DNA of 64,000 nt from Tateyamaria omphalii (GTDB lineage: Bacteria > Pseudomonadota > Alphaproteobacteria > Rhodobacterales > Rhodobacteraceae): assembly GCF_001969365.1 (NCBI RefSeq), contig NZ_CP019312.1, positions 1,798,001-1,862,000 of the forward strand. The letters are read 5' to 3'. Positions within the stretch are counted from its first letter, which is position 1. Each line of letters begins with the position of its first letter. The translations under genes and the position numbers were made by a program. Of this stretch, positions 10,968 to 13,368 are shown piece after piece. The notes below the pieces were generated by a model that worked only from the letters and a program-made list of their open reading frames with translations, did no database searches and had not been told where the DNA came from.

Positions 10968-11073
10968 GCCGCGACCGCGACCAAAGGCCACCGCAAACCA
11001 CACAATGTGATTGATCCTTCGGCATCCACGCCTCAATCTGGTACGAAGCGACGAGGACATGGAAGGGCCCCAA

Positions 11074-11841
11074 ATGACCGTTCAAGCGACGCTTGCAGGA
11101 AAACACGCACTGGTCACAGGGGGCGGCACGGGCATCGGCCTTGCCATCGCGCGCGCCCTTGCCAATCAAGGGGCGCAGGTGACCATCACCGGACGGCGGC
11201 AGACGGTGCTTGACGACGTCTCAGGCCCCGGCCTCCACGGCGCGGCGATGGATGTGCGGGACGAAACCTCTGTCCAAGACACGGTTGCCGCAGCGATCTC
11301 AGCGCGCGGTCCGGTGCAGATCTGCGTACCCAACGCGGGCATTGCCGAGGGTTGTTCGGTGCACAAGACCGATCTATCCTTCTGGCGCAACATGATGGCC
11401 ACAAATCTCGACGGGGCCTTCCTGACGATCAAGGCATGCCTGCCGGGGATGCGCGACACCGATTGGGGCCGCGTGATCGCGGTCTCCTCCATCGCAGGTC
11501 TGCGCGGGCTGCCGGGGGCTGCTGCCTATGCCGCCTCGAAACACGGGCTTATCGGGCTGATGCGCTCGCTCAGCGAAGAGTATATCGGCCAACCCTACAC
11601 CTTCAACGCGCTCTGCCCAGGCTATGTGGACACCCCGATCGTCGACCGGAACCAGGCGGCTATCGCGCAACGCACCGGCATTAGCACGGACGCAGCGCGG
11701 CAGCTGATGATTGATGCGAACCGTCACAAGCGCCTGCTTGACGCGGACGAGGTCGCGGCGGCAGCACTTTGGCTCGTCGGCCCCGGATCGCAAAGCATCA
11801 ATGGCCAGGCCATACAGATCTCCGGTGGGCAAACGGTCTAG
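11074..11841 (+). CDS. SDR family NAD(P)-dependent oxidoreductase
   Basis: A classical short-chain dehydrogenase/reductase of 255 residues. The cofactor motif TGGGTGIG is at residues 15-22, the NAG motif follows in PNAGIAEG near residue 89, and the catalytic Tyr152 and Lys156 are in AAYAASKHG. The overall look is close to 3-hydroxybutyrate dehydrogenase and acetoacetyl-CoA reductase-like SDRs, but the substrate is not established. The start at 11074 is preferred because GGAAGGG sits 7 bases upstream; alternative ATGs at 11059 and 11011 remain open. The stop codon abuts a REP-like palindrome pair. Confidence 0.9.
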   Translation: MTVQATLAGKHALVTGGGTGIGLAIARALANQGAQVTITGRRQTVLDDVSGPGLHGAAMDVRDETSVQDTVAAAISARGPVQICVPNAGIAEGCSVHKTDLSFWRNMMATNLDGAFLTIKACLPGMRDTDWGRVIAVSSIAGLRGLPGAAAYAASKHGLIGLMRSLSEEYIGQPYTFNALCPGYVDTPIVDRNQAAIAQRTGISTDAARQLMIDANRHKRLLDADEVAAAALWLVGPGSQSINGQAIQISGGQTV

Positions 11842-11922
11842 GGCGGATCAGGATCCGCCTTACGATGCCCCGCTACTGCAGTGCTGCTGCACGAGGATCG
11901 TAAGGCGTATGCGTCATACGCC
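11842..11922. repeat. BIME-like pair of REP palindromes at the 3' end of the RAYT-like gene
   Basis: Two palindromes face each other: GGCGGATCAGGATCCGCC (11842-11859) and GGCGTATGCGTCATACGCC (11904-11922). Each is followed, on its own strand, by the same TTACGAT tail, so the unit is palindrome, tail, spacer, inverted tail, palindrome. This is the arrangement of a bacterial interspersed mosaic element built from two REPs in opposite orientation. The second palindrome lies inside the last codons of the RAYT-like gene. The first one immediately follows the SDR stop and may help end that transcript. Confidence 0.75.
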
Positions 11923-12442
11923 GAACCAACGGCAGGTAGGCAGGTCCGACCGGCCCATGGGGCGTGAACGCACCGCGCAGAATGGCGCGGTGGATCGACG
12001 AATGCGGCCAGGCCTCTGGCCGGTTCACCAGACCAGCCTGCACCGGCGCCGTCCAGATCATATGCCGATGCGCCGCCAGATCATCTGCATCGCGAATGGC
12101 ATGTTCCCAGAACCGGCGCTGCCACAGCCCCTTTTCGCCGGGGCGCAAGTGTTGCCCGCTCACGTCCTCGGGCGCATCGACATTGCGGGAAAACATGCTT
12201 TTCAGCATCCGCCACCGCTTGGAAAAATCCGCGTCACCGGGCGGAAGGCGCCACATCGTGTGGATTACATCGCCCAAGACGACAATCTCGGAAATCTCGA
12301 ACGGGTGCTGATCCTTGGTCTTGCGCATGGCCGCACGCAGCGGGTCTATCTCGCGCAGGAACAGGTCAGTACCGCGGCGTGCGGCGCGCACGGTGAAGAA
12401 ATAGGTGACATCGGGGCGATCTGAGCGAATGTAGCGAGGCAT
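11873..12442 (-). CDS. RAYT-like (REP-associated tyrosine transposase family) protein, catalytic residues lost
   Basis: A 189-residue protein with the full-length look of the TnpA-REP (Y1/HUH) family. It has an N-terminal RYIRSDRPDVTYFFTVR stretch, the segment LPPGDADFSKRWRMLKSMFSR, the GLWQRRFWEHAIRD block and a PEAWPHSSIHR motif. The catalytic residues are missing, however. The usual His-x-His pair reads V59-I60-H61 (GDVIH), and the usual nucleophilic tyrosine before the xNPVxxGLV segment is Met128 (RHMIWTAPVQAGLV). The frame is intact with no stops, so the protein may be retained as a DNA-binding, non-cutting form. The last 16 residues are encoded by a REP palindrome. It has no terminal inverted repeats of an insertion sequence. 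Confidence 0.85.
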   Translation of the reverse strand: MPRYIRSDRPDVTYFFTVRAARRGTDLFLREIDPLRAAMRKTKDQHPFEISEIVVLGDVIHTMWRLPPGDADFSKRWRMLKSMFSRNVDAPEDVSGQHLRPGEKGLWQRRFWEHAIRDADDLAAHRHMIWTAPVQAGLVNRPEAWPHSSIHRAILRGAFTPHGPVGPAYLPLVRRMTHTPYDPRAAALQ

Positions 12443-12477: not shown

Positions 12478-13257
12478 TTAAGCCGACCGCAGCACCGGCC
12501 TGGCTCGACCACCATCGGCCCAATCACGACAGGCCGCGCCAAACGCCTCGAAGAGCGGGCGCGAGACGGGATCGCATTTCGCGTTCCATTCCGGGTGCCA
12601 CTGAACCGACAGGGTAAAGCCCGGTGCGCCGTCGATATAAATCGCTTCGGCCGTGCCATCCGGGGCATGCCCATCCACGACGACACGTGGTCCCGGATGC
12701 TTGATCCCCTGCCCGTGCAACGTGTTGGTCGGCACGCTCTGACGGCCCATCAACTGGTGAAACACGCCGTTCTCGGAAAAGGTCACATCGTGGCGCAAGG
12801 CGAACTTTTCCTCCAACGTGCCTTCGGGCGGCATGCGGTGATTGTCGCGGCCCGGCAGATCGCGGATTTCGGGGTAGAGCGAGCCGCCCATAGCCACGTT
12901 CACCTCCTGAAACCCGCGACAAATGCCCAGGATCGGCTGGCCCCGTTCCACGCAGGCGCGGATCAGGGGCAGCGTGATGGCGTCGCGGTTGCGGTCAAAA
13001 TCACCATGCGCCTCGGTCGGGTCTTCCCCGTATTCCTCCGGGTGCACATTGGCGCGACCACCGGTGAACACAAAGCCCGCGCAATGCTCCAGCAGGTCCG
13101 ACACCCGCACACTGCCCGGCTCTGACGGGATCATCATGGGCACCCCTTCGGCCACATCCGCCACGGCAGAGATGTTGATCAGGCCGGTGGCCTGCACCTC
13201 GTAGGTTTCGTGGATAACGTGGTGGTTTGAAATGATGCCAATGATGGGACGGGCCAT
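12478..13257 (-). CDS. gamma-glutamyl-gamma-aminobutyrate hydrolase family protein (PuuD-like)
   Basis: A class I glutamine-amidotransferase-like hydrolase of the PuuD family, which cleaves gamma-glutamyl amides such as gamma-glutamyl-GABA in putrescine breakdown. The nucleophile Cys113 lies in LGICRGFQEVN and the His221/Glu223 pair in VQWHPEW; the family oxyanion loop GFVFTGGRANVHP is near residues 61-73. The start at MARPIIGI is preferred over an ATG 27 bases upstream because it matches the family N-terminus. It is 259 residues long, close to the E. coli protein. No other putrescine genes are nearby, so the true substrate is uncertain. Confidence 0.88.
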   Translation of the reverse strand: MARPIIGIISNHHVIHETYEVQATGLINISAVADVAEGVPMMIPSEPGSVRVSDLLEHCAGFVFTGGRANVHPEEYGEDPTEAHGDFDRNRDAITLPLIRACVERGQPILGICRGFQEVNVAMGGSLYPEIRDLPGRDNHRMPPEGTLEEKFALRHDVTFSENGVFHQLMGRQSVPTNTLHGQGIKHPGPRVVVDGHAPDGTAEAIYIDGAPGFTLSVQWHPEWNAKCDPVSRPLFEAFGAACRDWADGGRARPVLRSA

Positions 13258-13368
13258 ATGGTCCTCTGCGCCGTTGCGTTTCACAGGATATACGCCACGC
13301 AGGCGCGCCCAGACCAGAGGAACGGGCGCGCAAGGACCTGTGCAAAAAGCCGCAGGTCGGGATTGTGC

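What the first reader, a model, noticed from the sequence alone, without database searches (positions are those of the whole stretch)
11842..12442. A full-length RAYT protein without its catalytic residues, beside an intact REP pair
The frame is intact and carries the family blocks, yet the HUH histidine pair reads VIH (residues 59-61) and the catalytic tyrosine position is Met128. Both changes should abolish DNA cleavage. Its 3' end overlaps one palindrome of a two-REP element with shared TTACGAT tails. A conserved, non-cutting RAYT would look like a domesticated REP-binding protein, which to my knowledge is not well described.
Basis: partly seen in the sequence, partly recalled or inferred. 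Interest (0 to 1): 0.7.

Follow-up and report, generated by a model that had tools for sequence, protein, structure and literature searches.

The report
Conserved non-cutting REP-transposase relative
This gene descends from a bacterial enzyme that cuts DNA at small repeated palindromes; it has lost the key cutting residues, yet relatives with the same losses are kept across many marine bacteria, often together with a matching set of palindromes, so it most likely still binds those repeats without cutting them.

Summary
Observation confirmed, and it generalises. ORF 11873-12442 (minus) is a RAYT homologue (NF047646, 146.5 bits; PDB 4er8, E 1e-27) whose HUH reads V-I-H, whose catalytic Tyr is Met128 and whose third metal ligand Asn is Ala132. 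Of the 120 best homologues, 73 of 73 nearest (window included) share all three losses; the 43 lowest-ranked keep both His. The 66 tree rows with Asn lost form one clade (100/98), with intermediates that still carry HUH and/or Tyr, at two main fixed loci. Median dN/dS is 0.16-0.24. Positions of E. coli tag contacts stay conserved. Where a REP lies at the gene, it is GTAA-tagged in 33 and GTAG-tagged in 6 clade genes, versus 0 and 20 for intact RAYTs. In the window's genus all 13 REP-rich genomes with the dead gene keep a REP beside it, the 4 REP-poor ones do not. In Loktanella/Yoonia, genome-wide REP types differ between dead subclades and match the REPs beside the gene, also in genomes where I found no other RAYT. 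Best reading: a domesticated, non-cutting REP-hairpin-binding protein. Binding, lack of cleavage and cellular role are untested; relic, REP-unrelated function and unusual catalysis remain open.

The parts
11873..12442 (-). RAYT-derived protein, 189 aa, without first HUH His (V59), catalytic Tyr (M128) and third metal ligand (A132)
12260..12268 (-). codons 59-61, V-I-H in place of H-x-H
   Evidence: alignment to 4er8 and to 119 homologues; coordinates worked out from the ORF
12059..12061 (-). codon 128, Met at the catalytic Tyr position
12047..12049 (-). codon 132, Ala at the Asn119 (metal ligand, NPV motif) position
   Evidence: role of N119 from PMC6006769 (passage)
11897..11922 (+). REP with GTAA tag (11900-11903), stem GGCGTATG/CATACGCC; lies inside the 3' end of the gene and encodes part of the C-terminal tail; stem covaries among orthologues
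11842..11866 (-). second REP, stem GGCGGATC/GATCCGCC with GTAA tag on the minus strand; faces the first (REPIN-like pair, 30 bp between them)
12478..13284 (-). Peptidase_C26 gene, conserved neighbour that helps to fix the locus
11050..11841 (+). short-chain dehydrogenase gene, neighbour on the other side, conserved in most but not all relatives

Best explanation
The gene encodes a domesticated, vertically inherited descendant of a RAYT (TnpA_REP) that has lost the cleavage chemistry but kept the surface that recognises its cognate REP hairpin. SHOWN by sequence: loss of first His, Tyr and Asn across a clade; purifying selection; fixed loci; conserved tag-contact positions; association with a REP class of its own, mostly GTAA-tagged; genome-wide REP types that match the REPs beside the gene where such REPs are present. 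INFERRED: it binds tag plus hairpin, as single-stranded DNA extruded during replication or as the same hairpin in RNA, without nicking, and thereby protects, masks or regulates REP sites or the 3' ends next to them. Which of these outcomes matters to the cell is not known.
For: (1) Catalytic loss is clade-wide: of the best 120 of 234 hits, 73 of 73 (P0001-P0073, the window included) have H59 to V/A/T, Y128 to M/L/I, N132 to A; P0074-P0077 have R/Q/K/T, V/V/L/M and A at these positions; the other 43 keep both His, 42 of them Tyr, 37 Asn. (2) Only five columns switch between two residues each conserved in at least 85% of its group (A52E, H59V, Y128M, N132A, H136A), while the positions of the E. 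coli GTAG contacts Q95, D100 (E100 in the aligned 4er8 chain) and R104 stay conserved as Q108, E113, R117 (contacts from PMC8266576). (3) Tree: one clade of 66 rows, 100/98, all N to A/S, with intermediates HHYA, HHFA, HHLA. Clade-1 loci: 32 of 32 among L002-L081 show at least two of the window's neighbours. Clade-2: 29 of 30 loci given share one neighbour cluster. (4) dN/dS 0.16-0.24. (5) Tags: of 116 distinct genes, dominant flanking tag GTAA 33 and GTAG 6 in this clade versus 0 and 20 for intact RAYTs. (6) In the genus, 13 of 13 REP-rich genomes (41-103 matches) with the dead gene have a REP at the gene, 0 of 4 REP-poor ones (5-16) do; genomes with only intact RAYT (G013, G016) show 5 and 8 matches, below their controls of 16 and 14. 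(7) RAYT dN/dS is 0.239 in pairs with a REP-poor genome versus 0.161 in REP-rich pairs; for three neighbours the shifts are small (0.076 to 0.090, 0.052 to 0.058, 0.069 to 0.051). (8) Stems covary, in the gene itself and at shared REP sites. (9) A published Tyr-to-Phe mutant of the Stenotrophomonas enzyme gives no cleavage product (PMC8266576).
Against: No binding data and no structure model (prediction switched off). The gene also persists where no such REPs were found: 11 of 12 clade-1 genomes outside the window's genus had 0 matches to the GTAAGRTGG pattern, and 12 of 13 such loci looked at had no tagged hairpin at the gene; other REP types were not searched there genome-wide. Four REP-poor genomes of the genus keep the gene. 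In clade 2 the link is not strict: L023, L038, L045, L053 and L056 have no REP at the gene although their genomes hold 16-58 matches. Six dead genes have GTAG as dominant tag. dN/dS is 2-3 times that of neighbours. Related species are not independent data, so the Fisher value overstates the support; the REP-rich/REP-poor cut and the dead/intact groups were set after seeing the data.
Confidence: 0.6

Rival explanations
1. Slow relic: catalysis was lost by decay, the protein is on its way out, and the REPs are remnants of past activity.
For: Broken frames in 3 of 66 loci; four REP-poor genomes in the genus with degraded or missing in-gene REPs; dN/dS higher than in neighbours.
Against: Frame intact in 63 of 66 clade loci, dN/dS 0.16-0.24 with many synonymous distances large or saturated, 19 invariant columns among 66 rows, and REP types that differ between subclades nested inside the dead clade.
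Confidence: 0.12
2. Function has moved away from REPs: a nucleic-acid-binding protein with some other target, REP linkage being ancestral.
For: Gene kept at the same locus in Roseobacter, Sulfitobacter and Pseudosulfitobacter genomes with 0 matches to the tested REP pattern.
Against: In the window's genus and in many Loktanella/Yoonia genomes the REP class beside the gene is the class found genome-wide; pairs with REP-poor genomes show weaker constraint on the gene.
Confidence: 0.15
3. Still catalytic by unusual chemistry, or cutting with a partner protein, using H61 and residues other than Tyr.
For: REP types changed within dead subclades; G081 and G099 have one RAYT match, a dead one, and no PF01797 match. 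Second His kept in 71 of 73.
Against: Nucleophile and two of three metal ligands are gone in all 73; no new conserved Tyr or HUH shows in the stretches tabulated.
Confidence: 0.08
4. Dominant-negative regulator of an intact RAYT in the same cell.
For: Several genomes carry both a dead and an intact type.
Against: In 6 of 20 genus genomes the dead gene is the only RAYT match (G009, G012, G014, G015, G017, G018); flanking REP tags of the two classes mostly differ.
Confidence: 0.05

Closest known systems
RAYT / TnpA_REP (class 2 of the Y1 HUH superfamily; E. coli 4er8)
   Same: Homologous over most of its length (residues 11-159 against 4er8, 3-148 against NF047646), REP pair beside the gene, REPs dispersed in the genome, fixed loci, inferred tag-contact positions conserved
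   Different: Lacks first HUH His, catalytic Tyr and Asn119; NPV(K/R)xG motif reads APVQAG; REPs carry GTAA instead of GTAG
IS200/IS605 TnpA (PF01797)
   Same: Remote relative
   Different: Below the Pfam cut-off (15.3 against 23 bits); gene sits at a fixed locus
REPINs / BIMEs
   Same: Two REPs in inverted orientation with a short spacer
   Different: One REP of the pair lies inside the gene and encodes part of the C-terminal tail
TldR, RNA-guided transcription factors (name seen in the abstract of PMC13418256; their origin from nuclease-dead TnpB is recalled)
   Same: Transposon-derived nucleic-acid protein kept without its chemistry
   Different: Unrelated protein and RNA-guided (recalled); only an analogy

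Membership tests
RAYT / TnpA_REP | Sequence family match | tested here: met
   NF047646 146.5 bits against 80; 4er8 E 1.4e-27
RAYT / TnpA_REP | H-hydrophobic-H metal motif | tested here: not met
   V-I-H; 0 of 73 nearest homologues (window included) keep the first His
RAYT / TnpA_REP | Catalytic Tyr followed by Asn (Y---NP) | tested here: not met
   M---AP; 0 of 73; signature from PMC6006769 (passage)
RAYT / TnpA_REP | NP(L/V)(R/K)xG motif | tested here: not met
   APVQAG; motif from PMC2817692 (passage)
RAYT / TnpA_REP | Flanked by two inverted REPs that recur in the genome | tested here: inconclusive
   An inverted pair is there and its family recurs (65 matches against 14 in the control), but both REPs lie at the 3' end, one inside the gene, rather than one on each side
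RAYT / TnpA_REP | REPs carry GTAG (GT[AG]G) tag | tested here: not met
   GTAA in the window and as dominant tag in 33 of 39 tagged clade genes; GTAG in 6
RAYT / TnpA_REP | Cleavage and strand transfer of REP ssDNA | not testable with these tools
   Needs purified protein
IS200/IS605 transposase | PF01797 over its cut-off | tested here: not met
   15.3 bits against 23
Pseudogene | Broken frames or unconstrained evolution | tested here: not met
   Window frame intact; 63 of 66 clade frames intact; median dN/dS 0.16-0.24

The most novel reading that the evidence does not exclude
REP populations keep turning over genome-wide without RAYT cleavage. In Loktanella/Yoonia, dead RAYTs at one locus go with different genome-wide REP types that match the REPs beside the dead gene: GTAAGGTGG (for example G077), GTAAGATGG (G081, G099) and GTAGGGTGG (G093, G095, G096, G101, G102), in genomes where the search found only that RAYT. 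Either the dead protein drives REP copying or conversion by a cleavage-free route (for instance by holding hairpins for template switching or gene conversion), or it exerts selection that makes REPs follow its binding preference.
Probability: 0.35. Interest if true: 0.88.

Novelty: new variant of a known kind. Interest (0 to 1): 0.72.

Why it matters
RAYTs are called domesticated transposases, but their host function and the way REPs spread are open (introduction of PMC8266576), and the published picture ties both to HUH/Tyr cleavage. A clade that lost the catalytic residues in steps at fixed loci, yet stays constrained and often keeps a matching REP population, separates binding from cutting. 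It makes the question 'what does a RAYT do for the cell?' testable in ordinary laboratory strains, and tests whether REP dispersal needs RAYT catalysis. One large survey built its tree only from sequences with HUH and Tyr (passage), so such proteins would have been left out there.

Tried and rejected
Alternative alignment with intact HUH or Tyr elsewhere: rejected. One-off mutation or sequencing error: rejected by the 72 other homologues. The idea that an intact RAYT in the same genome maintains the GTAA REPs is not supported, as intact RAYTs sit beside GTAG REPs and several REP-rich genomes have no other RAYT match, ten of them searched for PF01797 with matches in G011 alone. But four of the six GTAAGATGG genomes (G078, G080, G083, G104) do hold an intact RAYT as well, and a lost intact RAYT acting in trans in the past cannot be excluded. 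Independent loss of the first His in the two subclades: favoured by parsimony (3 changes) and by the locus shared with the intermediates, but a single loss is not rejected (AU p 0.25). REP presence at orthologous sites in three 400-kb regions gave few comparable sites (present at 1 of 5, 0 of 3, 1 of 2, 2 of 2, 0 of 1 and 2 of 2 sites in the six directions, out of 21, 21, 6, 6, 8 and 8 REPs): one site with three REPs in G012 and none in G003 or G000, two shared sites with compensatory stems, one of them without a recognisable REP in G012, one shared array decaying in G012, one REP-like hairpin inside a coding frame; suggestive only. REPs are depleted from long open stretches (25 of 35 against 858 of 900 random positions). 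Paper searches (only the top of the listings of 18 and 30 was seen) listed no paper on a catalytically dead RAYT family; GTAA was sought only inside PMC3733652 and PMC6006769, with no hit; a 2017 Bertels paper that I tried to open by a recalled DOI is not held. Absence from print is not proven.

Full report
WHAT IS THERE. The minus-strand ORF 11873-12442 (189 aa) is uninterrupted. It matches NCBIfam NF047646, REP-associated tyrosine transposase, at 146.5 bits (cut-off 80), and the E. coli TnpA_REP structure 4er8 at E 1.4e-27. PF01797 gives only 15.3 bits. In the 4er8 alignment, His59 falls on V59, His61 on H61, Tyr115 on M128 and Asn119 on A132. PMC6006769 (passages read) assigns Asn119 the role of third metal ligand and gives Y---NP as the class signature. 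The nucleophile and two of three metal ligands are therefore gone.

A FAMILY, NOT A FLUKE. A search of about 5.8 billion proteins returned 234 hits at 1e-10, of which the best 120 were listed and used. P0001-P0073 (P0001 is the window's own): 73 of 73 lack the first His (V 66, A 6, T 1), the Tyr (M 65, L 7, I 1) and the Asn (A 73); 71 of 73 keep the second His. P0074-P0077 lack first His, Tyr and Asn as well. P0078-P0120: 43 of 43 keep both His, 42 Tyr, 37 Asn. I formed the groups by rank in the hit list after seeing the motif table. Only five columns switch between two conserved states (A52E, H59V, Y128M, N132A, H136A). The positions of the published tag contacts (Q95, D100, R104; PMC8266576, discussion part 1 of 2 read; D100 aligns with E100 of the 4er8 chain) remain Q108, E113, R117 in both groups.

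STEPWISE LOSS AT FIXED LOCI. From named genomes (best 80 of 251 loci) and relatives I classified loci by residues. The tree holds 84 rows: the window, 77 of L002-L081 less three more with stops in my translation, and nine loci of relatives; L030, L034, L037, L044, L071 and L072 were dropped for stops. For L044 the stop is the natural end of a 176-residue protein that my script had read past, so it was dropped without need. All rows with Asn lost, 66, form one clade at 100/98. Within it stand HHYA (L050, L068), HHFA (L040, L061) and HHLA (L026) forms as well as the fully dead ones. Fewest changes: first His 3, Tyr 2, Asn 1; a single origin of first-His loss is not rejected (AU p 0.25). Clade 1 (Tateyamaria, Ascidiaceihabitans, Roseobacter, Sulfitobacter, Pseudosulfitobacter) lies between transhydrogenase, with or without the short-chain dehydrogenase gene, and Peptidase_C26/HbpS-like/malate synthase G genes: 32 of 32 loci among L002-L081 show at least two of these neighbours, with the RAYT gene flipped in place in some genera. 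In clade 2 (Loktanella, Yoonia and others) the most widespread neighbour cluster was found in 29 of the 30 loci given (L022, L044, L053 and L069 were not given), intermediates included; the genes around the RAYT in L036 match ketoacyl synthase, FabA, FUR and UPF0004/Radical_SAM.

SELECTION. NG86 dN/dS medians: 0.159 (17 sequences, 112 of 136 pairs usable), 0.236 (15; 58 of 105) and 0.167 (21; 207 of 210). Beside neighbours in the genus (16 loci; L012 not given): RAYT 0.177, dehydrogenase 0.081, C26 0.053, HbpS-like 0.062. RAYT pairs that include one of three REP-poor genomes give 0.239 (25 pairs), REP-rich pairs 0.161 (70 pairs). Many distances are large, so these are rough. Stops were flagged in 4 of 66 clade loci; L044 is not a real break (above), which leaves L030, L034 and L037.

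REPS. In the window two hairpins with ATCGTAA tags face each other; one sits in the last codons of the gene. At this in-gene site 12 distinct orthologous sequences, two of them decayed copies, pair in 93.8% of cells, with changes on both sides in 3 of 8 pairs. The covariation score is reached by 0 of 500 shuffles and the number of such pairs by 5 of 500, but the count of further pair types by 228 of 500; slid versions score lower. Genes without a recognisable copy (L012, L016, L098) were left out. The window's own copy differs from the others by compensatory changes that also alter the encoded tail. The own genome has 65 matches to CGTAAGGCG...CGCC against 14 in the control. Across 20 genomes of the genus, 17 have the dead gene. 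Of these, 13 have 41-103 matches (controls 5-16) and all 13 have a REP at the gene; 4 have 5-16 matches (G005 6, G009 16, G015 8, G018 5; controls 10, 6, 8, 5) and none at the gene; the 3 genomes without the dead gene have 0-8 matches. The tag distinguishes the classes: of 116 distinct genes, 71 belong to the clade, with dominant flanking tag GTAA in 33, GTAG in 6, none in 32; 42 are intact, with GTAG in 20, GTAA in 0, other in 2, none in 20; three are unclassified.

REP TURNOVER WITHOUT A COMPETENT ENZYME. In clade 2 the GTAAGRTGG pattern gives 20-86 matches in 18 of 25 dead-gene genomes and 2-16 in the other 7, with 0 in every reversed control; the intermediates G075, G084, G087, G090, G097 and G100 have 140, 85, 157, 1, 32 and 185. 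So forms that keep the HUH tend to have more REPs, with exceptions. Six genomes (G078, G080, G081, G083, G099, G104) have 54-84 GTAAGATGG copies, close to their totals, while six of seven others tested have 0 and one has 1. Another subclade (G093, G095, G096, G098, G101, G102) carries 44-59 GTAGGGTGG copies and 2-14 GTAA copies. Some genomes are mixed (G103: 55 and 30). REPs beside the dead gene are GTAAGATGG in six of six genomes of the first group (one also has a GTAGGATGG), GTAGGGTGG in five of six of the second with L055 mixed, and GTAAGGTGG where present in the rest; L076 is mixed, and L023, L038, L045, L053 and L056 have none. G081 and G099 have one RAYT match, the dead one, and no PF01797 match; G093, G095, G096, G101 and G102 also have one RAYT match each (PF01797 not searched there). 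G078, G080, G083 and G104 hold an intact RAYT too. In the window's genus PF01797 finds nothing in G003, G012, G014 and G017 and two proteins in G011; in G000 it finds only a truncated RAYT fragment. The extended ATC tag is common in G000 (33 of 65), G001 (20 of 49), G007 (22 of 52) and G004 (20 of 58), and rare in G011 (2 of 103), G014 (0 of 62), G006 (0 of 50) and G017 (2 of 78). So REP populations appear to have been renewed within dead-gene lineages, unless intact RAYTs, present or since lost, did it.

COMPARED WITH WHAT IS KNOWN. PMC2817692 (passages) reports that the catalytic residues are conserved in its alignment of selected RAYTs. PMC6006769 (passages) states that all its sequences share HUH and Y, and that only such sequences were retained for its tree. 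PMC8266576 (outline, introduction and part of the discussion read, passages elsewhere) reports that Tyr mutants do not cleave and that the tag takes part in binding and cleavage-site choice. My paper searches listed no report of a dead RAYT family. The protein is RAYT-derived; it is not a RAYT in the enzymatic sense.

VERDICT. Observation confirmed; the interpretation of a conserved non-cutting REP-binding protein is supported, with binding itself inferred.

Noticed in passing
window 11897-11922: Part of the C-terminal tail of the protein (RTTRAPY-type in relatives, RMTHTPY here) is encoded by a REP; the hairpin is kept by compensatory changes that alter amino acids.
   Followed up: partly
L015, L020, L024, L025, L029, L035, L047, L048, L054, L062, L064, L067: RAYT gene orientation is reversed relative to its neighbours compared with the window's genus: an in-place inversion at a conserved locus.
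   Followed up: no
L001 / G000:C1:3859773-3860045: A second, truncated RAYT with intact HLH but no Tyr region, near a GTAA-type hairpin.
   Followed up: partly
L021, L027, L028, L041, L049, L068 upstream; G080 genome-wide: Some clade-2 REPs are symmetric palindromes with the tag on both sides (GTAAG...CTTAC): 12 of 51 GTAA hairpins beside dead genes and 7 of 15 beside HUH-keeping clade genes, against 2 of 41 GTAG hairpins beside intact RAYTs.
   Followed up: partly
L030, L034, L037: In one Ascidiaceihabitans genome and two unnamed Rhodobacteraceae bins with no REP at the gene the dead RAYT frame carries stops.
   Followed up: partly
L247 (G070): Six copies of a GTAG REP at 54-55 bp spacing within the 300 bases examined downstream of an intact RAYT.
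   Followed up: no
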